DNA from: a virus
Strand: one strand, 5' to 3'
Length of the DNA: 23,461 nt
IMG/VR virus record: IMGVR_UViG_3300028027_002039
Coordinates: 1-23,461 of that record
The notes beneath the pieces were generated by a model. It was not told the origin of the DNA, ran no database searches, and was given only the letters and a program-made list of their open reading frames with translations. Position numbers and translations under genes: made by a program. Positions 238-19,054 of this stretch are shown here, in pieces. Position 1 is the first letter of the stretch. Each line of letters begins with the position of its first letter.

Positions 238-1143
238 TCAGCACACTAGTCCTATTTTACCATCTATTCCATGCCCAGTTGGATTTTCTCCAATCCATCT
301 AGAGTCTATAGGCTCGCTGGCTTTTTGATATCGCGAGTCACTAGATATGCGATACATATTTTGAGTTTGATTATCCAGTGAAGCATGTACTGTAAACATC
401 CCAAATGTGATAAAATCGCCTATCTCATATTCGCCTACTAGCCATCTGCCCTCAAACTTGTTTCTTATTTGTGGTGGATTTTGAGAAAGCGTTCCGGTAA
501 ACGTCCATTTACCCTCTTTAGCATTCTTCGCTTGCGTAGCGTTATTCTCGCAATAAGAGTCTACATCTCTATATACATAATTTTCTAATAGGTCCATTCG
601 CTTATGTGAGTTTTCTAGTATCATCAAACCACCTAGTGTATATGATATATCGCCATATGGCACCCAACAGGTCATATGTTTATGTGTGCCTCTGCCCATA
701 TACGGCAAATCACAATGTGGATTAGTTCCTTTACCTGGCCCTATAGCGCGAAGCCATGTATAGTCATAATGGCGTATATCTTCATTATAGAATTTTTTAT
801 AAAACTCTGTTAGCTGCCCGCTATATAACAATTTTTTTACGCTAGGGCACTTGTTTATGATTTCTGGCTTAAACACATATCCTGCATCTTTTTTTGCCGC
901 AGCATATATATTTGGATAGCTGGTATCTATTAAATCAAGATGTGCTAGTTGATCTGTGATTTGTCCGCGACATTCTTGCACAAGATCTTTGTTTAAATAA
1001 TTTTTGATATACAAATAGCCGTCGTTAATATATCTGTTTCGTAATTCATCAAAATCATTTATAGCATCACTTGAGTTTTTTAAGTAGCCAAGATCTTTAT
1101 GATCATTGCTTAATTCATGTCCAAACGATAATAGTTTTTCCAT
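238..1143 (-). CDS. PhyH-family Fe(II)/2-oxoglutarate dioxygenase
   Basis: A 301-residue protein, a usual length for phytanoyl-CoA dioxygenase (PhyH)-like oxygenases. The iron triad is visible as H143-x-D145 (in NPHCDLPYMGRG) and H253 (in FTVHASLDN). Arg265 and Arg271 in RISSDSRYQ fit the 2-oxoglutarate-binding position. The family couples decarboxylation of 2-oxoglutarate to hydroxylation of small molecules, nucleobases or proteins; the substrate here is not evident. PhyH-like genes are common in marine T4-like phages. It is one of only two minus-strand genes and diverges from the Pro-Thr fibre gene across 75 bp. On the minus strand the 1201-1208 element reads TATAAATA, the T4 late-promoter sequence, about 58 nt before this start. 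The context suggests hydroxylation of a virion protein or glycan, which is inference; a metabolic or DNA-modifying role is possible. Confidence 0.88.
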   Translation of the reverse strand: MEKLLSFGHELSNDHKDLGYLKNSSDAINDFDELRNRYINDGYLYIKNYLNKDLVQECRGQITDQLAHLDLIDTSYPNIYAAAKKDAGYVFKPEIINKCPSVKKLLYSGQLTEFYKKFYNEDIRHYDYTWLRAIGPGKGTNPHCDLPYMGRGTHKHMTCWVPYGDISYTLGGLMILENSHKRMDLLENYVYRDVDSYCENNATQAKNAKEGKWTFTGTLSQNPPQIRNKFEGRWLVGEYEIGDFITFGMFTVHASLDNQTQNMYRISSDSRYQKASEPIDSRWIGENPTGHGIDGKIGLVC

Positions 1144-1218: not shown

Positions 1219-3054
1219 ATGCCATCTCCGACGCCAACTCCTACACCCGAACAAATTATTCTTGATGCAATCTTGAACCAAGATGGCGAGTATATTGATT
1301 TGGGCAATGGAGAATATTTGAAGTATTATGATTCGTCTGTTTTGCCTACGCCAACGCCGAATCCAACAGAAACACCAACACCTACACCAACGGAGACGCC
1401 ATTGCCAACAGACACACCAACGCCAACAGCAACAGAAACGCCATTGCCAACTGATACACCCGTACCAACCGCAACGGCTACTCCGGTTCCGACGGCAACG
1501 CCTGTTCCAACAGATACACCAACGCCAACGCCGACCAGTACACCTACACCAACTCCAATGCCAACATCATGCCACGTCAGCGAAAGCTTATCACTTTATT
1601 ATGATACAACCGATTCGCTGTCTTATAGTGGTTCTGGTTCTGTTGTATATGATTTAAGTGGAAATGCATTAACTGGAAGCTTAAGTAATGTTTCATATAC
1701 AAATCCATATTTTAATTTTAACGGTAGTAGTTCGCAAATTACTATATTAGACAATGCTAAACTAGAACCTGGTAGCGGCGATTGGACCATGGAAGCATGG
1801 TTTAATACCACCGCGTTTAAGACTGGTGGCTCCGGTGTTATATTAGGAAAATTTGATCCGGGTGGATTGGCTGCTGATGTCGCATACTCAATAAGAACCA
1901 ACAGTGTTGGCGGATTGTTTGCTCAAATGGGCGACGGTAGCGGAGCTTTTATAAACAGTACAATATATCAAACAGCGTTGAACACTTGGACTCATGTTGT
2001 ATATGTTTGGAAAAATACTTCTGTAAATTCTTTAGAAACTTATATCGACGGAACAAGTATAGGCACTGTTTCTCATACACTATCTTCTATACTAAACACT
2101 CCAGCAAACTTGTATATTGGTTCATATAACAATGGAGAATATCCTCAATATTTCAATGGCAAGATTGGTACGGTGAGATTATATAATACGGCATTGTCGT
2201 CTTCTCAAATAGTTAGAAACTACAATTGCGGAACATCTTATTTTTACAACGGAGCACCTCCAACTTCTACGCCGACTCCTACATCAACGGCAACACCTAC
2301 ACCAACTCCAACGGCAACGGAAACTCCGCTGCCAACAGCAACTGCTACTCCGGTTCCGACGGACACGCCTGTTCCAACGGATACACCGACGCCAACGCCA
2401 ACACCGACGGATACACCAACGCCAACGCCGACTCCTACCGAGACGCCATTGCCGACAGATACTCCGGTTCCTACAGACACACCATCTCCCACACCGACGG
2501 AAACTCCGTTACCAACGGATACACCAACACCGGCTCCTACAGACACCCCATCTCCTACGGATACACCAAGCCCAACGGACACTCCGACTCCAACGCCCAC
2601 ACCGACGGATACACCCTCTCCTACGGATACACCAACGCCAACTCCTACCGAGACACCCGTTCCAACGGATACACCTACACCAACGCCGACGGAAACACCT
2701 GCTCCTACACACACGCCAACGCCCACACCTACGCCGACTCCAGTTGGTCCAATAATCAACGCATCTCCTGTATTATATGGTGACGCTCAATTTTATCTAG
2801 GTCCAGAAATAATCAGTCCAGTAAGTTATAGTTTCAACTATGGTGAAATTGTAACATTAAGCGCAAGTCAAACTTATTATGCATTTGATTATTATGAAGT
2901 ACACGAGCCAGCGGTAGTAGTAGAGTCTTCATTCTTTTATAAAACATACAAAGGATTTGTAGCATCATTTGACCCCCGCACCAAAGTACAATTAAATTAT
3001 GACAGCAGTATTACTGGATCAAATGGTTTAATTATCGCAAGATATCGCCAGTAG
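1219..3054 (+). CDS. Pro-Thr-rich tail fibre/adhesin with LamG-like domain
   Basis: A 611-residue multidomain protein. A short PTPTPTP start and a 30-residue segment lead into a Pro-Thr tract (about 42-117). A LamG/concanavalin-like beta-sandwich follows (about 119-340; note [17 protein letters not shown] and [12 protein letters not shown]). A second, much longer Pro-Thr-Asp/Glu tract (about 347-510) leads to a unique C-terminal domain. LamG-type domains bind glycans or proteins, so a receptor-binding or decoration role on the virion fits. There is no signal peptide. The Pro-Thr tracts are rigid, extended spacers and plausible O-glycosylation targets (inference). The tract DNA is a degenerate repeat prone to recombination or slippage. 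The start is the only ATG before the PTPTPTP and is preceded by TATTTATA. The gene diverges from the dioxygenase. Virion location is inferred from architecture. Confidence 0.75.
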
Positions 3055-8219: not shown

Positions 8220-10571
8220 ATGTCAAACCAGAAAATATCACAGCTTAGAGGACTAGAATTTAACAAAGTTGTTAGCGGCAACTTGATTCCTATCGTTGAC
8301 CGCAACGAAATAACCAGTGCTCAAGGTGAAACCAAAGCAATCACGGTTGGTGATCTTGTTCAATATATCGTATCCGGTGGATTCTTAGAAATTTGTACAC
8401 CTGTACATGGATTTCAAACTGCCAATGGATTGGTGTTTGACCAAAATGTTACGGCATCGAGTGATTTGAATTTACGTTGCTATTCTGATTTTCCAGCGGC
8501 TGGCACAGAGTTTAGTTTGATGTTAAGAGCCGTTGTACCAAACACGATTGTTACTCAATCCAGCGCAAGAACATTATTCGGCGTTGGTACAAGTCCAGAG
8601 AATGTTGTTGCCAGCGGACATTCGGCATATGTTGGAATTGAGGGTGTTGATTTGATTGGATTTACGGACGATGGAATAACAACAAAGAAAATTCCATTCT
8701 TGAATTTCTTTGAGAACTATATGGATCGTCCATTTGAAGTTGTATTAACACGCGACGTTACAGGTTCATTAAGTTTGTTTCTAAACAGCACATTGGTTGG
8801 TAAGCTATACGGAGCAACAACAGCAATTTCTAGTTCATATGTTGTTATGGGCAATGGTAATTTAACTTTGCCAAACATAGACTGCACAATTTACGAAGCG
8901 CATGTATTCAACAAATCTTTGTCTGAAAACGAAGTAAATAGTATTTTCTACAACGGTGTAACCAATTCTAATCCAAAATTAATTGCGTCATATACATCTG
9001 TAAATTTGAATCCCGGCCCAACTCAATGGCTAGATTCCAAAGGATCTCGTCATATATTGCTACCGATCTCTGGAGCAAGAGCAAGTAATCCAGACAAAGA
9101 ATTTAGTTTAAGATTTAGAAACGACGGAACATCTGGTTATCTAGGAAACGGAACCAAACGCGATATATTGCCAGACAATTATGTATTGACTGATGCGTTT
9201 ATGTATTCAACGGGTTCTCCATTACTTTCTATTGGTTCATCTGCATCAGTTGCTGGACCTGGCGACCTTGGAATATATTCATGGAACAACAACAGAGTTC
9301 CATTGACCAATGCTGTGTATAGCAGAAACAATTTAGGTTTGATTGATTTGGGAGTAGCACACACAGACAAGTCTATTTATGTATTTTACAGTGCAAGTGC
9401 CGCACCATGTACGTTTAGTTTTGAGGGATATGTTTCAGAGTATGGACCGGTTGTATATGTACCACCAACACCGACTCCAACGCCTACTCCGACACCTACA
9501 CCGACCCCAACCCCGACAACAACTCCGGTTGGCCCAACACCTACACCTACGCCTACGGCAACTCCGGTTCCTACCGCAACTCCAGAACCTACGCAAACAC
9601 CGGGCGGTCCTACGGCAACACCTACTCCAGATCCGACAGCAACTCCAACACCGGAGCCAACTGGTACGCCAACCCCAACAGCAACGCCAACCCCAACAGC
9701 AACGCCGGTTCCATTTGAGTTCACAGGATTGACTGCAATCGGAGCAACAAAGTGTTCCGACAATAACGCAGTTGTTGCCGGTTGGACAAGTGCGGCGTCT
9801 CAACAAGTTGATGTAACTGTAAGTTGGAACAATCCTGCTACGGTTGCCGATCCGGTTAATATTTATTTGAGTTGGTTTGGATGGATCGCATTGACTGACA
9901 ATTCTACAAGTGCAACATACAACGACCAAGGTGTTCTAAGTGGAAATCATACAGTAAGATTCTACAGAGAAACTGACACAATTGATGTTGGTACAATCAA
10001 TGTTGTATACAACTTGGGTGGTAAGATGACCAATGCATCTGCTCTATCATGGGCCGCTTCTACAAACGCTCTAGACTTGAATCTATCTGGTATTACTGGA
10101 AACTATAAGTATAGAGTTCGCGATTGTACAACTCCGTCGAATAGTGATTCCGGTACTCTATCCGCGTCATCCGAGAATATATCAACGGGAGCCATCAGTC
10201 CAACCAGAATTGCGTTTATTGAAGTCATATCAAGTACAGATAGCTTTGCGTCGCCAACGGCAAGTCCAGATTCGTGTGGACCAACCCCAACTCCAACACC
10301 TGTTCCAACCAATACACCAGGTGGACCAACCGCTACTCCAACGCCGGAGCCAACGGCAACACCGGAACCAACGGCAACGCCAACTCCGGAACCGACAGCA
10401 ACACCGGAACCGACGTGCGTAGAATATGAATTTACAGATGCGTTTGCAAATCTATATCTGAATAAATGCTACAGTCCAGGCATTCAAAACGTATACCTAG
10501 GCGACCGATTCTGCTTCACATCTACTCCACCGGGTAGTTATTGGTTGGAAATCGGACCTTGCAATTATTAA
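8220..10571 (+). CDS. large Pro-Thr-rich tail fibre with LamG-like domain
   Basis: A 783-residue, five- to six-part protein. The N-terminal ~55 residues ([14 protein letters not shown], then [24 protein letters not shown]) look like the conserved virion-attachment module found at the start of phage fibres. A LamG/concanavalin-like domain (about 60-250; note [13 protein letters not shown] and [16 protein letters not shown]), a beta-rich segment (250-410), a Pro-Thr tract (about 413-497), a domain shared with the 4200-5141 protein (499-685), a second Pro-Thr tract (about 687-735) and a 48-residue Cys-containing C-terminus follow. It is a likely receptor-binding fibre or adhesin; function is inferred from architecture. 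The large size, repeats and domain sharing point to modular exchange. The next gene starts 8 nt downstream. Confidence 0.8.
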
Positions 10572-10955: not shown

Positions 10956-12209
10956 ATGAGTAATCAAAAAATATTCGTCCAAATCGCATCATACAGAGAT
11001 CCTGAACTGGTGCCTACCATTCGTGATTGTATTGCCAAAGCAAAAAATCCAGAAAATTTAACCTTTGGTATTTGCTGGCAAAAAGACGACACAGAGTCAT
11101 TGGAAGAATTTGCAAATCATCCAGCATTCAAGATTGCTACATATGACTATACAGAGAGTCAAGGTCTTGGCTGGGCACGTAATATTACCAACCAATTATA
11201 TTCCGGCGAAAAATATACTATGCAGTTGGACAGTCATCATAGATTTGTTCAAGATTGGGACGCTCTTGTTCTGGAAGATTATGCTCAAGCATTAACGATG
11301 GCAAAAAAGCCAATCATTAGTACATATTGCACTCCATTTGATACCAAAGAGCCAGTTGAAAAAGCAAGTCAAGTTCCTTGCCTAATGTCTCAATATGAAT
11401 TTAGCAATGATAAATTGCTCATGAGTATGCCGCATTATATCGGCAACTATAAAGATAAGAGATGTGTTATTCGTTCTAGAACTTTGAGCGGACACTTTTT
11501 CTTTGTTGAAGGCAATTTCATCAACGAAGTTCCATACGATCCAGACATTTACTTTGGCGGATATACCGAAGAAACTACAATGAGTGTTCGTGCATTTACT
11601 CATGGCTATGACTTTTTCAGTCCATACCGCATGATTATGTGGCATGAATATACTCGTAAATATCGCCCAAAACATTGGGACGACCACGGCAAAGAAAGTG
11701 CTACAAAGAAAACGAGCGGCGCAAGAGACGCATATGCCAGAAACAAAACTCGTCAATTGTTTGGTCAAGAAGACCACGGAATTGAAATGGGAATATACGG
11801 ACTTGGCAATGAACGCACATTACATGATTATGAAGTATATGGCGGCTTCAATTTCAAGAAGTGCAAAATTCAAGATTATACTTTGATGGTAAAAGATGCA
11901 CCAAACCCACCAGATTGGGAAGCACAGTTTGACAGAAAGCGTTTAAACATGACGGTAAGCTGGGATGTTGAACATTTCAAGGCAGAAGACATTGGTGATT
12001 ATGAGTTCATCACGCTTGGTATTGTTGACAAGTTTGCTAACAACTTATACAGAATAGATTTCAAGCCAACCACAAATCCAGACGTGTTTAATTATACCCA
12101 AAGTTCATTGAACGTTGATGTAATGACAGACAACAAGCCCGACATGCTTGTAATGTATGCATACAGCAAAAAGAATCTTTGGGGCAAACGCTTTGAGAAA
12201 AAATTATGA
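10956..12209 (+). CDS. GT60-like (Skp1/mucin-type) GlcNAc-transferase
   Basis: A 417-residue GT-A fold enzyme. It opens with IFVQIASYRDPELVPTI (6-22), then GICWQ (38-42), GWARN (72-76), the metal/UDP-sugar motif LDSHHRF (91-97, a DxH in place of DxD), GGYTEETTMSVRAFTHGYDF (201-220) with acidic residues, and WHEY (229-232). This is the pattern of the GlcNAc family (CAZy GT60), which includes the Dictyostelium Skp1 hydroxyproline GlcNAc-transferase and the Trypanosoma cruzi mucin polypeptide alpha-GlcNAc-transferase. Bacterial and viral members are little studied. Residues ~300-417 form an extra beta-rich region. It leads a four-gene sugar cassette and overlaps the next gene by 4 bp (ATGA). The acceptor is unknown; the Pro-Thr fibres are attractive candidates. 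Confidence 0.85.
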   Translation: MSNQKIFVQIASYRDPELVPTIRDCIAKAKNPENLTFGICWQKDDTESLEEFANHPAFKIATYDYTESQGLGWARNITNQLYSGEKYTMQLDSHHRFVQDWDALVLEDYAQALTMAKKPIISTYCTPFDTKEPVEKASQVPCLMSQYEFSNDKLLMSMPHYIGNYKDKRCVIRSRTLSGHFFFVEGNFINEVPYDPDIYFGGYTEETTMSVRAFTHGYDFFSPYRMIMWHEYTRKYRPKHWDDHGKESATKKTSGARDAYARNKTRQLFGQEDHGIEMGIYGLGNERTLHDYEVYGGFNFKKCKIQDYTLMVKDAPNPPDWEAQFDRKRLNMTVSWDVEHFKAEDIGDYEFITLGIVDKFANNLYRIDFKPTTNPDVFNYTQSSLNVDVMTDNKPDMLVMYAYSKKNLWGKRFEKKL

Positions 12210-13384
12210 GAATTGTATTCACCGTTTTAGGAAATAGCCGTCGTAGCAACTATCTTGATGGTGACACGCTTCGTAATGGCAATGGAGGAGGTTCTGGTAC
12301 AGACACCAGTTCTATTGTTGTAGCCGAACAACTTGCCGCACAAGGACACGATGTTGTGCTTGTGTCTGAAAAGCTAGAAGCAAGACTTCAAGAAGAGTAT
12401 GCTAAAAAAGGAATACACTTCAACGCTGGCAAAAAGGTTCGCGGTGTAACGTATACAAACTTTGAGTTTGAAGGCGTTGAGGACAGAAACTTTGATATAC
12501 TTGTCAACAGTCTTTGGTTCAACAAATATAACGAACTTCCTATCAAAGTAAGTAAAGCTGTTATTTACTGGTGTCATATGCAATGGATATATGGCATTTC
12601 GGAGCTATTGAACTATGTTACAACCAACAATCTCAAGTTGGGATTTGTGAATATATCTCAGTGGGAGAAAGACATGAATACTCCTATTATCAATGATACT
12701 ATTCGTAAGATTGCCGGAACTAAGACGGCAATGATTCCAAATCCAGTAATGGATGATGTTATAAACGAAGTGTTGGCGACCAATCCAGTAAGAAAGCCGC
12801 ACAAGTTTGTGTTTCACGCTGCTTGGGCACGCGGTGGAAACGTAGCGGTCAAAGCTGTAAAAGAGTTGGATCTTCCAGACAGCGAATTACACGCATTTGA
12901 TTATTTGATGGCAACTCACGACCATAAAGATTCATTCTTTCATCGTCACAACGGAGTTGACAAAAAGACATTGTTTACAAACATTGCAGAAAGTGAATAC
13001 TTTGTGTATCCATTATACACGCCATATCAAGATGTTCACAAAGACACATTCTCTTGTGTAGTTGCCGAAGCAATCGCACTCGGAGCAATCGTTGTAACAT
13101 ATCCACTCGGCGCACTGCCAGAATATTATGACGGATATTGTGCATGGTTGAATTTTCCAGAAAACACCGACCCAGCAAAAATGCAGTCCGAGCCATTGAG
13201 CAAAGACTTAGAAGGTAAATTTACTTGCACGCATAACATCGTTGACAAAATAAAATATCTTGAAGCAAATCCTCAAGTAAAAGAGGAAATTCGCGCCAAG
13301 GGTAAAGATTATATCTTGGACAGATTCAATGCAGCTAAAGTTGGCAATATGTGGAAAGACTTTATTGACGACTTGCTAAAGTGA
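12206..13384 (+). CDS. GT4-like (GT-B fold) glycosyltransferase
   Basis: A 392-residue GT-B glycosyltransferase. The N-terminal Rossmann domain has a Gly-rich donor/acceptor loop (NGNGGGSGTDTSSIVVAEQL, 24-43) followed by GHDVVLVSE. The linker carries IPNPV (177-181). The C-terminal domain has DTFSCVVAEAIALGAIVVTY (280-299), matching the E-x7-E region of GT4 family members, although the first Glu is replaced by Asp or lost. Retaining transfer from a nucleotide sugar is expected. Donor and acceptor cannot be read from the sequence. The start overlaps the GT60-like stop (ATGA), indicating coupled translation, and the next gene begins 4 nt after its stop. Confidence 0.85.
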   Translation: MRIVFTVLGNSRRSNYLDGDTLRNGNGGGSGTDTSSIVVAEQLAAQGHDVVLVSEKLEARLQEEYAKKGIHFNAGKKVRGVTYTNFEFEGVEDRNFDILVNSLWFNKYNELPIKVSKAVIYWCHMQWIYGISELLNYVTTNNLKLGFVNISQWEKDMNTPIINDTIRKIAGTKTAMIPNPVMDDVINEVLATNPVRKPHKFVFHAAWARGGNVAVKAVKELDLPDSELHAFDYLMATHDHKDSFFHRHNGVDKKTLFTNIAESEYFVYPLYTPYQDVHKDTFSCVVAEAIALGAIVVTYPLGALPEYYDGYCAWLNFPENTDPAKMQSEPLSKDLEGKFTCTHNIVDKIKYLEANPQVKEEIRAKGKDYILDRFNAAKVGNMWKDFIDDLLK

Positions 13385-13388
13385 TCGT

Positions 13389-14888
13389 ATGAAGATTGAC
13401 CAATTTTTCCAAAAGGGTTATTATATAAACCTTGATAGAAGAACTGACAGAAAGCAGCAGTTTGAGGAAGAAGTATCGAAGGTTGGATTAAGTCACTTCT
13501 TTGAGCGAGTTTCTGGTCATGATGCTATCAATGAACCAGACCCTATGAAGAAGCACTATTATTGCGGCTCTTCATATATGAGGCTGTTTAACAAGATATA
13601 CGAAGAAGGTCATGAACGGGTATTGATATTTGAGGATGATATAATGTTTTATAACGGCGGCGCAAAGTCTGCTATTGAAATAATTGAAGATGCTCTTGAT
13701 GAAATACAAAACTTTCCAGATTGGGATATGTTATTTCTTGGAGGTCATCCGATAGGAGAAATGGCGCAAGTATCTGAAAATCTGTCTATACCATATAAGA
13801 TATTGGCTATGCACGCTACGGGCTATACACGAAAAGGTATACAAAAAATATTACCATACAAACCATTTGCCGACAGTGCTATTGACGGATGGGTTTCTGC
13901 CAGACCATATATCAAAAAATATATAGTAAACTCACTTGCTGTGTCACAGACGGATGGTATAAGTGATTTAGATGCGACAGGAAAGAGTGTGGGGTTGGAT
14001 GGATTTCTTGATAGCTACAACAAAGTAAAAAGGACTATAGCAATGCAACCAAAAAAACAACAAATGGTATTATCTAAAAATTATATTACACCGAGACTAC
14101 AAGGCAGAACAGGAAACATAATGTTTCAAGTTGCTCATGCATATGTCAAGTCGCTTGAGCACAATCGGCAGTTTGTTGTTCCTTCCGAAGAATCTTCTAC
14201 AAAACATTTGGAAAAAGGTTTGTTTAGAAAATTTGATTTTAGAATAGAAAAAATACCAGACGCCGCAGAAGCAAAACATATTTGGGGACCATTCACATTT
14301 GGTAATTATCCAGCACCAGCAGACGACCAACCGACGGTATATGCTGGCTGGTATCAATCTGAAAAGTTCTTTGGCAAATATAAAGAAGTTATTAGAGATG
14401 TATTCTCGCCGCCCCATGAATTTATAAAGAAAGCACTAACCGATTTTCCTATGCTAACAAACTCCGTTGTTGCAGCAATCAATGTAAGACGTGGAGATTA
14501 TTTGACACAACCAAGAAGACACCCGGTTGTAACATTACCATATATTCAAGAAGCAATCAAACGATTGCCAAAACACGATGTTATATTAGTTGTAAGTGAC
14601 GACATTGCTTGGTGCAAAGAAAACATCAAAGAAAGCAATATTGTGTTTGCAGAAAAGTATTTTGACCAAGAAGCATTATGGCTATTGTCTTTGTGCGACC
14701 ATTATATCATTTCTAATTCAACATTCAGTTGGTGGGGAGCATATCTTTCTCGCAATCCAAATAAAGTTGTTGTATCGCCTTCAACATGGTTTGGTCCAGA
14801 TGTAGCCGAGAATCCACAAGACATATGGTGTGATGGTTGGATAAAGATTGACACGAAGTGGGAAGACGGCTATATAGTATTGAAATAA
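13389..14888 (+). CDS. GT25-GT11 fusion: predicted galactosyl/fucosyl-transferase
   Basis: A 499-residue two-enzyme fusion. Residues ~5-215 are a GT25 (LPS/collagen-type) domain: KGYYINLDRRTDRKQQFEEE (9-28), the FEDD metal site (81-84), WDMLFLGG and ATGYTRKG. Residues ~228-499 are a GT11 alpha-1,2-fucosyltransferase-like domain: GRTGNIMFQVAHAY (239-252; family GGxGNQMFQYA), INVRRGDYL (364-372, the GDP-fucose HxRRGDY motif with Asn for His) and ISNSTFSWWGAYL (441-453). GT25 enzymes commonly transfer galactose, for example to collagen hydroxylysine or LPS, and GT11 enzymes put fucose on galactose, so the two could act in sequence (inference). The joint (215-228) is short and in one frame, with no sign of a sequencing artefact. 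Confidence 0.88.
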   Translation: MKIDQFFQKGYYINLDRRTDRKQQFEEEVSKVGLSHFFERVSGHDAINEPDPMKKHYYCGSSYMRLFNKIYEEGHERVLIFEDDIMFYNGGAKSAIEIIEDALDEIQNFPDWDMLFLGGHPIGEMAQVSENLSIPYKILAMHATGYTRKGIQKILPYKPFADSAIDGWVSARPYIKKYIVNSLAVSQTDGISDLDATGKSVGLDGFLDSYNKVKRTIAMQPKKQQMVLSKNYITPRLQGRTGNIMFQVAHAYVKSLEHNRQFVVPSEESSTKHLEKGLFRKFDFRIEKIPDAAEAKHIWGPFTFGNYPAPADDQPTVYAGWYQSEKFFGKYKEVIRDVFSPPHEFIKKALTDFPMLTNSVVAAINVRRGDYLTQPRRHPVVTLPYIQEAIKRLPKHDVILVVSDDIAWCKENIKESNIVFAEKYFDQEALWLLSLCDHYIISNSTFSWWGAYLSRNPNKVVVSPSTWFGPDVAENPQDIWCDGWIKIDTKWEDGYIVLK

Positions 14889-14892
14889 AAGT

Positions 14893-15978
14893 ATGTACGA
14901 TTATATCATAGTAGGTGCGGGATTTTTCGGTGCGATTTGTGCGCACGAACTTCATAAAAAAGGTAAGAAGGTTCTTGTAATAGAATCTCGCAGTCATATC
15001 GCGGGCAACTGCTATAGTGAAAATAGAGACAATATAAATCTTCATGTATATGGACCGCATATTTTTCATACATTAAACGAAGAAGTATGGAAATGGATAA
15101 ATCAATTTGCTACATTCAACAACTTTGTATACACTCCCGTCGCAAACTATAAAGAAAAATTATATGCTCTACCATTCAATATGTGGACATTTTATCAAAT
15201 GTGGGGAGCAACGTCAGAACAAGAAGTAAAAGAGATTATTAAAAAGCAGTCGTCTGTTATAACAGGCGAGCCAAAGAACCTTGAAGAACAAGCAATCAAA
15301 CTTGTTGGCTCGGACGTATACAACACGCTTATCAAAGGTTATACAGAAAAACAATGGAGAAAGCCCGCCACAGAACTACCCAAAGAGATTATCAAGCGGC
15401 TTCCTGTTCGTTATACATTTGACAACAACTATTTCAATGATAAGTACCAAGGCATACCCGTCGGTGGTTATACAAAAATATTTGAGAAGTTGTTAGAAGG
15501 CATTGAAGTAAGACTAAATACAGATTATTTTAATACAGAACTGCCAGAACATAACAAAGTTATTTATACCGGTCCTATTGACAAATATTTTGGTTATAAG
15601 CACGGCAAACTTGAATATAAAACGGTTGAACTTGATCATATGAGAATAGATACGCCAAATTATCAGGGCGTTGCTGTGATAAATCATACAGACAAAGATG
15701 TGCCGCATACTCGTACTATAGAACACAAACACTTTGAGAAATCAGATAGCCCAGTTTCGTGGGTAAGCTGGGAAACTCCAGTTGAATATGTTCCAGAAAA
15801 AACTGAACCATATTATCCTGTGAATGACGCCGCAAACACTGAAATATATAACAGATATAAAGCAGAAGCAGATTCTCAAAGCAAAGTTATATTTGGCGGC
15901 AGACTTGGTGAATATAAATATTATGATATGCATCAGGTGATTGCTAGTGCATTGAATTGCGCCAAAACTTTATTATAG
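14893..15978 (+). CDS. glf: UDP-galactopyranose mutase
   Basis: A 361-residue flavoenzyme, close to the usual 360-390. The dinucleotide-binding motif is at the start (YIIVGAGFFGAICAHEL, 4-20) with the Glu ending the second strand (VLVIESR). The UGM signature HVYGPHIFHT lies at 51-60, and FGGRLGEYKYYDMHQVI near the C-terminus is the family's FAD/substrate motif. It interconverts UDP-galactopyranose and UDP-galactofuranose using reduced FAD in the cytoplasm. It is the last gene of the sugar cassette and starts 4 nt after the GT25-GT11 gene. Its presence implies that one transferase here, or in the host, uses UDP-Galf. Few phages carry this gene. Confidence 0.95.
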   Translation: MYDYIIVGAGFFGAICAHELHKKGKKVLVIESRSHIAGNCYSENRDNINLHVYGPHIFHTLNEEVWKWINQFATFNNFVYTPVANYKEKLYALPFNMWTFYQMWGATSEQEVKEIIKKQSSVITGEPKNLEEQAIKLVGSDVYNTLIKGYTEKQWRKPATELPKEIIKRLPVRYTFDNNYFNDKYQGIPVGGYTKIFEKLLEGIEVRLNTDYFNTELPEHNKVIYTGPIDKYFGYKHGKLEYKTVELDHMRIDTPNYQGVAVINHTDKDVPHTRTIEHKHFEKSDSPVSWVSWETPVEYVPEKTEPYYPVNDAANTEIYNRYKAEADSQSKVIFGGRLGEYKYYDMHQVIASALNCAKTLL

Positions 15979-16873: not shown

Positions 16874-17329
16874 ATGTACAATATGTCAAAATACAATCGT
16901 GATGAATTCATCACACCGTTTGATTCGTTATTCGATGATTTGCTTGCAAGTCATTTCCCGAAACTAAATTCGGACCTTGGAGGAAACTTCTTTGCTAAAG
17001 GAAGCTATCCACGAGTAGATGTTATAGAAAAACCAGACAAGCTCGTGCTTGAAGCTGAAATTCACGGTCTTACTAAAGAAGATATTACCGTTGAACTTGA
17101 AGGTGAAAACCTTGTTATAAAAGGTTGCAAGCGTCAAAAAGAAGGCAATGGTTCAGAAAAGTATCTATTAAGAGAAATTCGCCGCAGTTCTTTCCAACGC
17201 TCATTTGTTGTTGGTGAAAACATCGACAAAAAGAAAATAAAAGCAGATTTCAAAGATGGACTGCTTACCGTCGATTTGCCAAGACTGAAAGTTGAAGAAG
17301 AAAAACCTACCAAAGTTAAGCTTTTATAA
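16874..17329 (+). CDS. Hsp20 small heat-shock protein
   Basis: A 151-residue alpha-crystallin-type chaperone. The N-terminal arm (FITPFDSLFDDLLASHF) is followed by the crystallin domain (about 45-138), with PRVDVIEKPDKLVLEAEIHG, FQRSFVVGENIDKKKIKADF and the signature GLLTVDLPR (129-137). The tail ends KVKLL, which may serve as the V-x-L (IxI-type) oligomerisation motif. These ATP-independent chaperones hold unfolding proteins; T4-like marine phages often carry one, probably for scaffold or capsid folding. A second in-frame ATG at 16883 (MSKYNRDEF) is as likely a start. The gene stands alone between two terminators. Confidence 0.95.
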   Translation: MYNMSKYNRDEFITPFDSLFDDLLASHFPKLNSDLGGNFFAKGSYPRVDVIEKPDKLVLEAEIHGLTKEDITVELEGENLVIKGCKRQKEGNGSEKYLLREIRRSSFQRSFVVGENIDKKKIKADFKDGLLTVDLPRLKVEEEKPTKVKLL

Positions 17330-17527: not shown

Positions 17528-19054
17528 ATGAGACTTTTGGCATTTTTCGTGTTACTTTCCGCCATTGCTATAGCAGCATGTGGAGCATATTTTAGTATCG
17601 TAGGCTTGACCCTACTATTCGTCGGGGGTGGCATCTCTATAATAGTTATGGGAACGGCATTGGAGATTGGCAAAATCATCACTGCAACTTTTCTAAAGCA
17701 AAAATGGGATGAAATAACCCTATGGCTTAAAACATACTTGGTGTTGGCCACAATATTATTGATGGTTATAACCTCCGTTGGTATTTATGGTTATTTGAGT
17801 GCGGGGTATACCGCAACATCAATAGCCGTACAGGGCTATGAACGCCAAATAGAGCTAAATACAACGAAGATACAAGAACTTGACAAGGAAATATCGTTCT
17901 TGAAACAGGACACTTATAATCAAAGCGAAATTGAAGCTGTTGATGCTACTAGAAAAAGTTTTGCTGCACAACGCCTCAAACTTATAGATGACCGAAATAA
18001 ACAAATAGAAAAACTAAGATCTGCAACAGACACAAAAGATGCATCCGGCGATATAACAACTGCTAAACAAGCACTTGATGTAGCCAAAGCATCACTAGAC
18101 TCCGATACAGCAAAGGAACTTGAACAAATCAAGTTATATAACTCGCGTTTAGAGATATTGGACCAAGAAGTTAAAAGATGGCTTGATGAAGGTACGGGTG
18201 GCATGTTCAAGAAAAATGGACTGGATAAAGCTAGAACAACCAAAGACCTTCAAAAGAAAGACCGCGACGACATCGACGTTCAGATTAAAAATTCTCAAGA
18301 TAGAATAGAAAAACTGCGTGCTGGTTATGCTGCACAAGTAAAGGAATATAATGACCGTGTTGCAGCAATCGAAGGTCGTGCTAAATCTCAAAGAGGAGAA
18401 ACCGAAGCAAATATCAAGAGTTTGGAAAAAGAAAACGCGGACGCGATAGTATCAATTTCAGCATATAACAAAGAATGTGATGAAAAAATTGCAGCTCTTA
18501 ATGTAAAAAAAGGAGAATTGATAGAACAAAACAAAAAGAAGATAATTGAAGACCAAGCAACCATTCAAGAATTGCACGCACAGAATGATATAAGCAAAGA
18601 AAAAATCGTTCATACAGACGTAGGTACATTTAAGTTTATTGCCAAGAGTCTAAATATTCCATTGGACGATGCTGTAAACTATTTTATATGGCTAATCATG
18701 AGTGTGTTCGATCCATTGGCGATATGTTTGATTCTTGTTTTCAACATGCTAATGGGTAAAAATAAAAAACCAGAGGTATTGGTGGAAGAAACTCCAAAAC
18801 CAACCCCAACGCCAACATCAACTCCCGTTCCAACTTCTACGCCGGAACCAACTTCTACGCCGGAGCCAACGGAAACTCCCACTCCAACTCCAACACCGGT
18901 TGTAGAAGAAACAGTAGCTCCAACTCCAACCGAGTTGATAGAACCCGAACAAGTTTCATTTTCACCGGCAACAGTGGAAGGTGAATTTATTTCACCAGTT
19001 CCACCACCACCAAGAGTTCCACACGGAATCACAAGCGGCAAGCCTCGCGCTTAA
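17528..19054 (+). CDS. membrane protein with long coiled coil and Pro-Thr tail
   Basis: A 508-residue protein. Three hydrophobic segments at the start (about 3-20, 22-44 and 68-92) include VMGTALEIGKIITATFL and a TYLVLATILLMVITSVGIYG stretch. A long Lys/Glu/Gln-rich region (about 100-370) looks like coiled coil. A fourth hydrophobic segment (about 385-409) leads to a Pro-Thr-Glu tract (423-468) and a Pro-rich end. The N-terminal membrane pattern resembles a conserved hypothetical protein of marine T4-like phages. The two membrane blocks around a coiled coil could make a hairpin-like rod reaching out from a membrane. A role in the host envelope, or as a tape-measure-like or injected virion protein, is possible but unproven. 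The Pro-Thr tail links it to the fibres. Confidence 0.75.
   Translation: MRLLAFFVLLSAIAIAACGAYFSIVGLTLLFVGGGISIIVMGTALEIGKIITATFLKQKWDEITLWLKTYLVLATILLMVITSVGIYGYLSAGYTATSIAVQGYERQIELNTTKIQELDKEISFLKQDTYNQSEIEAVDATRKSFAAQRLKLIDDRNKQIEKLRSATDTKDASGDITTAKQALDVAKASLDSDTAKELEQIKLYNSRLEILDQEVKRWLDEGTGGMFKKNGLDKARTTKDLQKKDRDDIDVQIKNSQDRIEKLRAGYAAQVKEYNDRVAAIEGRAKSQRGETEANIKSLEKENADAIVSISAYNKECDEKIAALNVKKGELIEQNKKKIIEDQATIQELHAQNDISKEKIVHTDVGTFKFIAKSLNIPLDDAVNYFIWLIMSVFDPLAICLILVFNMLMGKNKKPEVLVEETPKPTPTPTSTPVPTSTPEPTSTPEPTETPTPTPTPVVEETVAPTPTELIEPEQVSFSPATVEGEFISPVPPPPRVPHGITSGKPRA

What the first reader, a model, noticed from the sequence alone, without database searches (positions are those of the whole stretch)
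13389..14888. GT25-GT11 two-enzyme fusion
One 499-residue frame carries complete motif sets of two unrelated folds: GT25 (YYINLDRR, FEDD) and GT11 (GRTGNIMFQVA, RRGDYL, SNSTFSWWGAYL). Galactosyl- and alpha-1,2-fucosyl-type activities in one chain would make a Fuc-Gal unit processively. The invariant His of the GT11 HxRRGDY motif is Asn here.
Basis: partly seen in the sequence, partly recalled or inferred. Interest (0 to 1): 0.6.

Follow-up and report, generated by a model that had tools for sequence, protein, structure and literature searches.

The report
Phage two-in-one sugar-transfer enzyme
A bacterial virus has joined two neighbouring sugar-adding enzymes (probably one adding galactose, one adding fucose) into a single protein; the join is real but one of many in such viruses, and its gene cluster usually sits right after a virion-like protein full of threonine-proline repeats that may be what gets sugar-coated.

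Summary
Window 13389-14888 is one 499-aa frame with a GT25 domain (residues 1-212) and a GT11 domain (231-499) joined by a variable linker. A second virus record (L001, 73% identical, same length) has the same fusion, so a sequencing error is very unlikely. In about 20 related cassettes the two genes are separate neighbours. In four of these they lie in one frame with a single TAA and one codon between, so stop loss explains the fusion; both domain trees put the fused pair together. The "invariant" His is not invariant: Asn occurs in 22 viral and 8 bacterial relatives. GT11 is a frequent fusion partner in viral contigs, and a Bodo saltans virus protein appears to share the GT25-GT11 layout.

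The more interesting result is the neighbourhood. The cassette begins with a PF11397 (GT60-type) GlcNAc-transferase, usually directly downstream of a Thr-Pro-repeat, fibre-like gene. TP repeats and PF11397 co-occur (33/43 records versus 7/50 other GT11 phages, p=1e-9; 19/22 versus 4/24 among backbone relatives). I infer GlcNAc-Gal-Fuc-type O-glycosylation of the phage's own TP-repeat proteins. Acceptor, donors and activities are unproven. Modification of host LPS remains the main rival.

The parts
13389..14888 (+). GT25-GT11 fusion gene, 499 aa
   Evidence: single frame; PF01755 + PF01531; same fusion in L001
13389..14024 (+). GT25 domain, residues 1-212 (FEDD at 13629-13640)
   Evidence: Pfam; fold match to human COLGALT1 GT25 domain with Mn/UDP-Gal, 9evj; 76% identical to L001, dN 0.16
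14025..14078 (+). linker, residues 213-230, with internal ATG (Met226, 14064-14066) where GT11 genes of unfused relatives start
   Evidence: pLDDT <50 at 218-225; 17% identity to L001 linker; L002, L014, L097, L101 have TAA + one codon + ATG in frame here
14079..14885 (+). GT11 domain, residues 231-499 (NVRRGDY at 14481-14501)
   Evidence: Pfam; phrog_2644; fold match to NodZ, FUT8, AtFUT1, POFUT1
10956..12209 (+). first gene of the cassette: PF11397 GlcNAc-transferase (GT60-type), 417 aa
   Evidence: PF11397 3.8e-59; conserved first or early gene of the cassette
12206..13384 (+). divergent GT-B (GT4-like) glycosyltransferase, 392 aa, overlaps previous gene by 4 bp
   Evidence: weak Pfam/PHROGs GT4-type matches; conserved in 41 distinct cassettes
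14893..15978 (+). UDP-galactopyranose mutase, would supply UDP-galactofuranose
   Evidence: TIGR00031 equivalog above cut-off; PF03275 4.6e-73
8220..10571 (+). 783-aa virion-like (fibre-like) protein with Thr-Pro repeats, directly upstream of the cassette; candidate glycan acceptor
   Evidence: TP-rich window 28/30 residues, 384 bp gap to the GlcNAcT; same arrangement in many relatives
1219..3054 (+). second TP-repeat protein with a laminin-G/ConA-like lectin domain; possible further acceptor
   Evidence: PF13385 9.7e-22; TP-rich

Best explanation
A tailed phage carries a cassette of soluble glycosyltransferases (PF11397 GlcNAc-transferase, GT4-like, GT25, GT11, UDP-Gal mutase). In the ancestor of this phage and L001 the adjacent GT25 and GT11 genes fused, most likely by loss of one stop codon. 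SHOWN: the fusion, its conservation, its single-clade origin, the conserved cassette and the upstream TP-repeat gene. INFERRED: the chain works as two tethered, independent active sites. The GT-A domain (metal-binding FEDD) adds a hexose, most likely galactose from UDP-Gal, to an acceptor begun by the GlcNAc-transferase. The C-terminal GT-B domain then adds a deoxyhexose, most likely alpha-1,2-fucose from GDP-Fuc supplied by the host. Tethering raises local concentration and keeps the two steps 1:1. The most likely acceptor is the phage's own Thr-Pro-repeat fibre-like proteins (mucin-type O-glycosylation), modified on Thr.
For: Domain assignments, folds and purifying selection on both domains but not the linker. 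Second fused record; fused pair a clade in both trees. Unfused neighbours in the same cassette, often overlapping by 4 bp, with a one-stop separation in four records. PF11397/GT60 enzymes known elsewhere start protein O-glycans: on Thr of T. cruzi mucins, with Gal/Galf extensions, and on Skp1 hydroxyproline followed by a bifunctional GalT/a1,2-FucT (PMC9472816, PMC6939170). TP-repeat gene 34-386 bp upstream of the GlcNAcT in 17 loci. TP repeats in 33/43 cassette records versus 7/50 other GT11 phages, p=1e-9. Among relatives sharing the late-gene sigma-like marker, 19/22 PF11397+ versus 4/24 PF11397-. GMD and a second SDR gene lie beside GT11 in related phages.
Against: No activity, donor or acceptor is measured. 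Cassette phages share ancestry, and the TP gene is physically linked to the cassette, so co-occurrence partly reflects descent and co-sampling on fragments. 10 of 43 cassette records show no TP repeat (some fragmentary). No GDP-fucose synthesis gene (PF16363) was found in most cassette records. The role of the mutase product (UDP-Galf) is unassigned. GT25 and GT11 enzymes also build bacterial LOS/O-antigen. The internal ATG could still yield free GT11.
Confidence: 0.5

Rival explanations
1. The cassette, including the fusion, remodels host surface glycans (LPS/LOS, O-antigen or capsule) during infection, for example to block superinfection.
For: GT25 (PF01755) is named for LPS biosynthesis. 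Adjacent GT11 and GT25 genes also sit next to each other in bacteria, e.g. Polaribacter, and in cyanophage S-SRM01 and ACG-2014f GT clusters. UDP-Galf is a common O-antigen donor (general knowledge).
Against: The first enzyme is PF11397, whose characterised members modify proteins. The cassette lies directly behind a fibre-like TP-repeat gene and ahead of late genes. No flippase, polymerase or lipid-carrier transferase was recognised among the window ORFs searched.
Confidence: 0.27
2. The fusion is functionally neutral: a chance stop loss between two co-translated genes, with no benefit over separate enzymes; GT11 may still also be made from the internal start. (This concerns the fusion only and can be true alongside the best explanation or the LPS rival.)
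For: Separate adjacent genes are the norm and presumably do the same job. One stop loss suffices. The internal ATG is kept at or next to the old start in both fused genes. The cassette shows other fusions.
Against: The fusion has persisted to 73% protein identity with zero gaps. GT-A/GT11 fusions recur in viruses, hinting at some advantage.
Confidence: 0.4
3. Skp1-like pathway: a prolyl hydroxylase makes hydroxyproline in the TP repeats, which the PF11397 enzyme then glycosylates.
For: A PhyH-type dioxygenase lies at 238-1143 in the window; the Skp1 pathway has the same order of activities.
Against: PhyH occurs in only 2 of 43 cassette records; in the window it is 10 kb away on the other strand. 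Other oxygenase families were not searched.
Confidence: 0.06
4. Assembly or frame error joined two separate genes.
For: Most relatives have separate genes.
Against: Independent fused record L001 with a gapless alignment; the linker has diverged like real sequence.
Confidence: 0.02

Closest known systems
Bodo saltans virus A0A2H4UUT1 ('alpha-1,2-fucosyltransferase', 494 aa, giant virus)
   Same: Best viral fold match over the whole chain: 529 columns, E=5e-38, 24% identity; by alignment the same GT25-then-GT11 layout and almost the same length
   Different: Virus of a eukaryote; domain arrangement in the model differs (rmsd 16); its sequence could not be read here; common origin of the fusion not tested
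PgtA of Dictyostelium/Toxoplasma (bifunctional b1,3-GalT / a1,2-FucT)
   Same: Works like it: one chain with GalT and a1,2-FucT, acting after a GT60 GlcNAc-transferase (PMC6939170)
   Different: GT2 + GT74, not GT25 + GT11; substrate Skp1 hydroxyproline
T. brucei mitochondrial TbGTX/TbGTZ (GT25) and TbFUT1 (GT11)
   Same: Same two CAZy families proposed to make Fuca1-2Galb1-3GlcNAc (PMC9472816)
   Different: Separate polypeptides; acceptor unknown
Chlorovirus PBCV-1 A111/114R
   Same: Viral multidomain GT with predicted GalT and FucT domains (PMC7826918)
   Different: GT8-like, XylT and alpha-1,3-FucT (H. pylori FucT-like) domains; three domains
Unfused phage GT25/GT11 cassettes and viral GT2-GT11(-GT10) fusions in IMG/VR
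   Same: Same genes in the same cassette, or GT11 behind another GT-A domain
   Different: Separate genes, or a different partner family

Membership tests
CAZy GT25 (PF01755) | Profile match above curated cut-off | tested here: met
   29.5 bits vs 24; N-half alone 32.3 bits
CAZy GT25 (PF01755) | GT-A fold with acidic metal-binding motif | tested here: met
   FEDD: E-D-D invariant in relatives; fold match to COLGALT1, Mimivirus R655 and a b1,4-GalT
CAZy GT25 (PF01755) | UDP-Gal (or UDP-Glc) transferase activity | not testable with these tools
   needs enzyme assay
CAZy GT11 (PF01531) | Profile match above curated cut-off | tested here: met
   104 bits vs 23.9, residues 217-487
CAZy GT11 (PF01531) | Motif I RRGD(Y) of the GDP-Fuc site | tested here: met
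   R367-R368-G369-D370-Y371; the His two before it is Asn, but that position varies across GT11
CAZy GT11 (PF01531) | GT-B fucosyltransferase fold | tested here: met
   NodZ, FUT8, AtFUT1, POFUT1 matches
CAZy GT11 (PF01531) | GDP-fucose donor, a1,2 linkage | not testable with these tools
   only context: GMD plus a second SDR gene next to GT11 in related phages
PgtA-type bifunctional GalT/FucT | GT2 + GT74 domains | tested here: not met
   domains are GT25 + GT11
PBCV-1 A111/114R family | Three GT domains with alpha-1,3-FucT-type C-terminus | tested here: not met
   two domains, GT11
GT60-initiated mucin-type O-glycosylation | PF11397/GT60 polypeptide GlcNAc-transferase present | tested here: met
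   window 10956-12209, 3.8e-59
GT60-initiated mucin-type O-glycosylation | Thr/Pro-rich acceptor protein linked to it | tested here: met
   (association only)
GT60-initiated mucin-type O-glycosylation | Glycan actually on Thr of the acceptor | not testable with these tools
   needs mass spectrometry
Skp1 hydroxyproline pathway | Linked prolyl hydroxylase | tested here: not met
   PhyH in 2 of 43 cassette records; other oxygenase families not searched

The most novel reading that the evidence does not exclude
A widespread lineage of environmental tailed phages encodes its own mucin-type O-glycosylation system: a GT60-type enzyme puts GlcNAc on Thr of Thr-Pro-repeat fibre proteins, and an interchangeable set of downstream enzymes (here a fused Gal/Fuc transferase and Galf supply) builds a variable cap, so that related phages wear different sugar coats.
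Probability: 0.4. Interest if true: 0.75.

Novelty: new variant of a known kind. Interest (0 to 1): 0.5.

Why it matters
The fusion gives one small, testable enzyme that should make a Fuc-Gal unit in two steps, and the unfused sister genes are ready-made controls. More widely, phage glycosyltransferases are usually guessed to act on DNA or host LPS. A GlcNAc-transferase cassette repeatedly parked behind a Thr-Pro-repeat virion-like gene makes a third target, the phage's own virion protein, directly testable.

Tried and rejected
Frame error: rejected (second fused record). His-to-Asn as a sign of changed activity: rejected (common in the clade). Facing active sites: not supported by the model (pTM 0.57, disordered linker). 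Skp1-like hydroxyproline route: PhyH in only 2/43 records. GT25-GT11 fusions in cellular genomes: the scan with the fused protein found no relative; 80 bacterial GT11 loci gave adjacent but unfused GT25 genes. Wider survey: 228 distinct GT11 ORFs, no further GT25-GT11 fusion. Two MAFFT alignments (A7, A8) misplaced half-length rows and were dropped; A9 with full-length rows was used for folding. A viral scan with a bacterial GT11 query found nothing. The GT4-like gene has no relative in named phages. Papers on a GT25-GT11 fusion: none relevant in the held library.

Full report
1. The observation. Window 13389-14888 (+) is one 499-aa frame. Pfam gives GT25 (residues 8-106, 29.5 bits, cut-off 24) and GT11 (residues 217-487, 104 bits, cut-off 23.9). 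Each half alone keeps its assignment and PHROGs agrees. AlphaFold2 on a 23-row alignment gives mean pLDDT 90, pTM 0.57, and one disordered stretch at 218-225. Foldseek matches the N-half to GT25 structures (human COLGALT1 with Mn/UDP-Gal, Mimivirus R655, a bacterial b1,4-GalT) and the C-half to GT-B fucosyltransferases (NodZ, FUT8, AtFUT1, POFUT1).

2. Real fusion, not an error. A scan of IMG/VR found a second record, L001 (IMGVR_UViG_3300043446_004179), with the same 499-aa protein at 73% identity, no gaps and the same operon. The two domains are 76% and 74% identical (dN 0.16 and 0.20, dS saturated), the linker 17%: both domains are under purifying selection and the linker is free.

3. Origin. 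In the same cassette of about 20 other viral contigs the GT25 and GT11 genes are adjacent but separate, mostly with gaps of -14 to +7 bp and often a 4-bp overlap. In L002, L014, L097 and L101 they are in frame, separated by one TAA and one codon, so a single stop loss would fuse them. Maximum-likelihood trees put the two fused proteins together for GT11 (99/94) and GT25 (100/100), with L010 (unfused) as the sister of the pair in the GT11 tree. The old GT11 start survives as an internal ATG at residue 226 or 227, so free GT11 may still be made.

4. How unusual. Among 228 distinct GT11 ORFs (viral and bacterial) only these two are GT25-GT11. GT11 is nevertheless a habitual fusion partner: GT11-UGM in L003 within the same cassette; GT2-GT11-GT10 in L042, L281, L287, L324 and L326, with L299 of like size and layout; L318 with an added GT29-like domain; GT2-GT11 in L279 and bacterial L214; FkbM-GT2-GT11 in L063. 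The cassette's other genes fuse as well: GT4-methyltransferase in L082 and, by sequence, L110. The best whole-chain viral fold match is a 494-aa Bodo saltans virus protein, aligned over 529 columns at 24% identity: the same layout apparently already exists in a giant virus. I could not read that sequence.

5. The His. The position two before RRGD is His in 53 viral and 42 bacterial relatives, but Asn in 22 viral and 8 bacterial ones, with S/T/V/Q/L/C in others. Asn marks this phage clade whether fused or not.

6. The cassette. Order: PF11397 GlcNAc-transferase, GT4-like, GT25-GT11, UDP-Gal mutase (TIGR00031 equivalog). The GlcNAcT-GT4 pair is conserved in 41 distinct viral contigs, with insertions and swaps in what follows. 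Close backbone relatives keep the PF11397 gene and exchange what follows; L426, a near relative, has no GT11 there. GDP-mannose dehydratase (PF16363) is absent from most cassette records, though the 335-kb G006 has SDR matches; GMD plus a second SDR gene sit near GT11 in the L025 and L061 phages, and a GMD and an NAD-dependent epimerase near GT11 in ACG-2014f. GDP-fucose as donor is therefore an inference and would have to come from the host here.

7. The likely acceptor. The gene just upstream (8220-10571) encodes a fibre-like protein with Thr-Pro repeats ('fibre-like' is my reading of its N-terminus; Pfam and PHROGs name no family), and three more TP-rich proteins lie in the window. A TP-rich gene lies 34-386 bp upstream of the GlcNAc-transferase in 17 loci, and the same arrangement is seen in L427, L428 and L429. 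Whole-record scans for four TP units: 33/43 cassette records versus 7/50 other GT11 phages, Fisher p=1e-9; two of those seven also hold PF11397. Within phages sharing the late-gene sigma-like marker: 19/22 PF11397+ versus 4/24 PF11397-, p=4e-6, or 19/22 versus 4/15 among the closer ones, p=4e-4. These tests do not remove shared descent or physical linkage, and many records are fragments.

8. Mechanism. GT60 enzymes elsewhere start protein O-glycans, on Thr in T. cruzi mucins (extended with Gal and Galf) and on Skp1 hydroxyproline, where a bifunctional b1,3-GalT/a1,2-FucT adds the next two sugars. Trypanosome GT25 and GT11 enzymes are proposed to make Fuca1-2Galb1-3GlcNAc. By analogy I propose GlcNAc on Thr, then Gal by the GT25 half, then Fuc by the GT11 half, on the phage's own TP-repeat proteins. 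The hydroxyproline version is disfavoured (PhyH in 2/43 records). Virion glycosylation has precedent in mycobacteriophages (Freeman et al. 2023, as cited in PMC12619734). Host LPS modification is the main rival.

9. Verdict. The fusion is real and conserved but a new variant of a known kind. The association of a GT60-type cassette with TP-repeat virion-like genes is the part most worth a bench test.

Noticed in passing
L281, L287, L299, L324, L326, L318, L042: Viral ORFs of about 790-1080 aa with GT11 between other domains; those tested by Pfam are GT2-GT11-GT10 fusions, L318 adds a GT29-like (sialyltransferase) domain; L299 was not tested but has the same size.
   Followed up: partly
L003:4666-6627: GT11 fused to UDP-galactopyranose mutase (653 aa) in the same cassette: a transferase fused to a sugar-nucleotide enzyme.
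   Followed up: partly
L001:11236-13143: A DnaK-like (Hsp70) ORF of 635 aa in a phage record, next to an Hsp20 gene; the window has the Hsp20 (16874-17329) but not the Hsp70 at this place.
   Followed up: no
window 17528-19054: 508-aa protein with N-terminal hydrophobic segments, a long charged (coiled-coil-like) middle and a TP-repeat tail, conserved in relatives (L001, L426, L427).
   Followed up: no
window 238-1143 (-): PhyH-type dioxygenase, rare in related cassette phages (2/43 records).
   Followed up: partly
L004:7316-9372: Three tandem GT25 genes followed by GT11: expansion of the GT25 step in one cassette.
   Followed up: no
window 2244-2759 (-), 9386-9763 (-), 18679-19041 (-): Gly-Val-repeat antisense ORFs are shadows of the TP repeats, not genes.
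   Followed up: no
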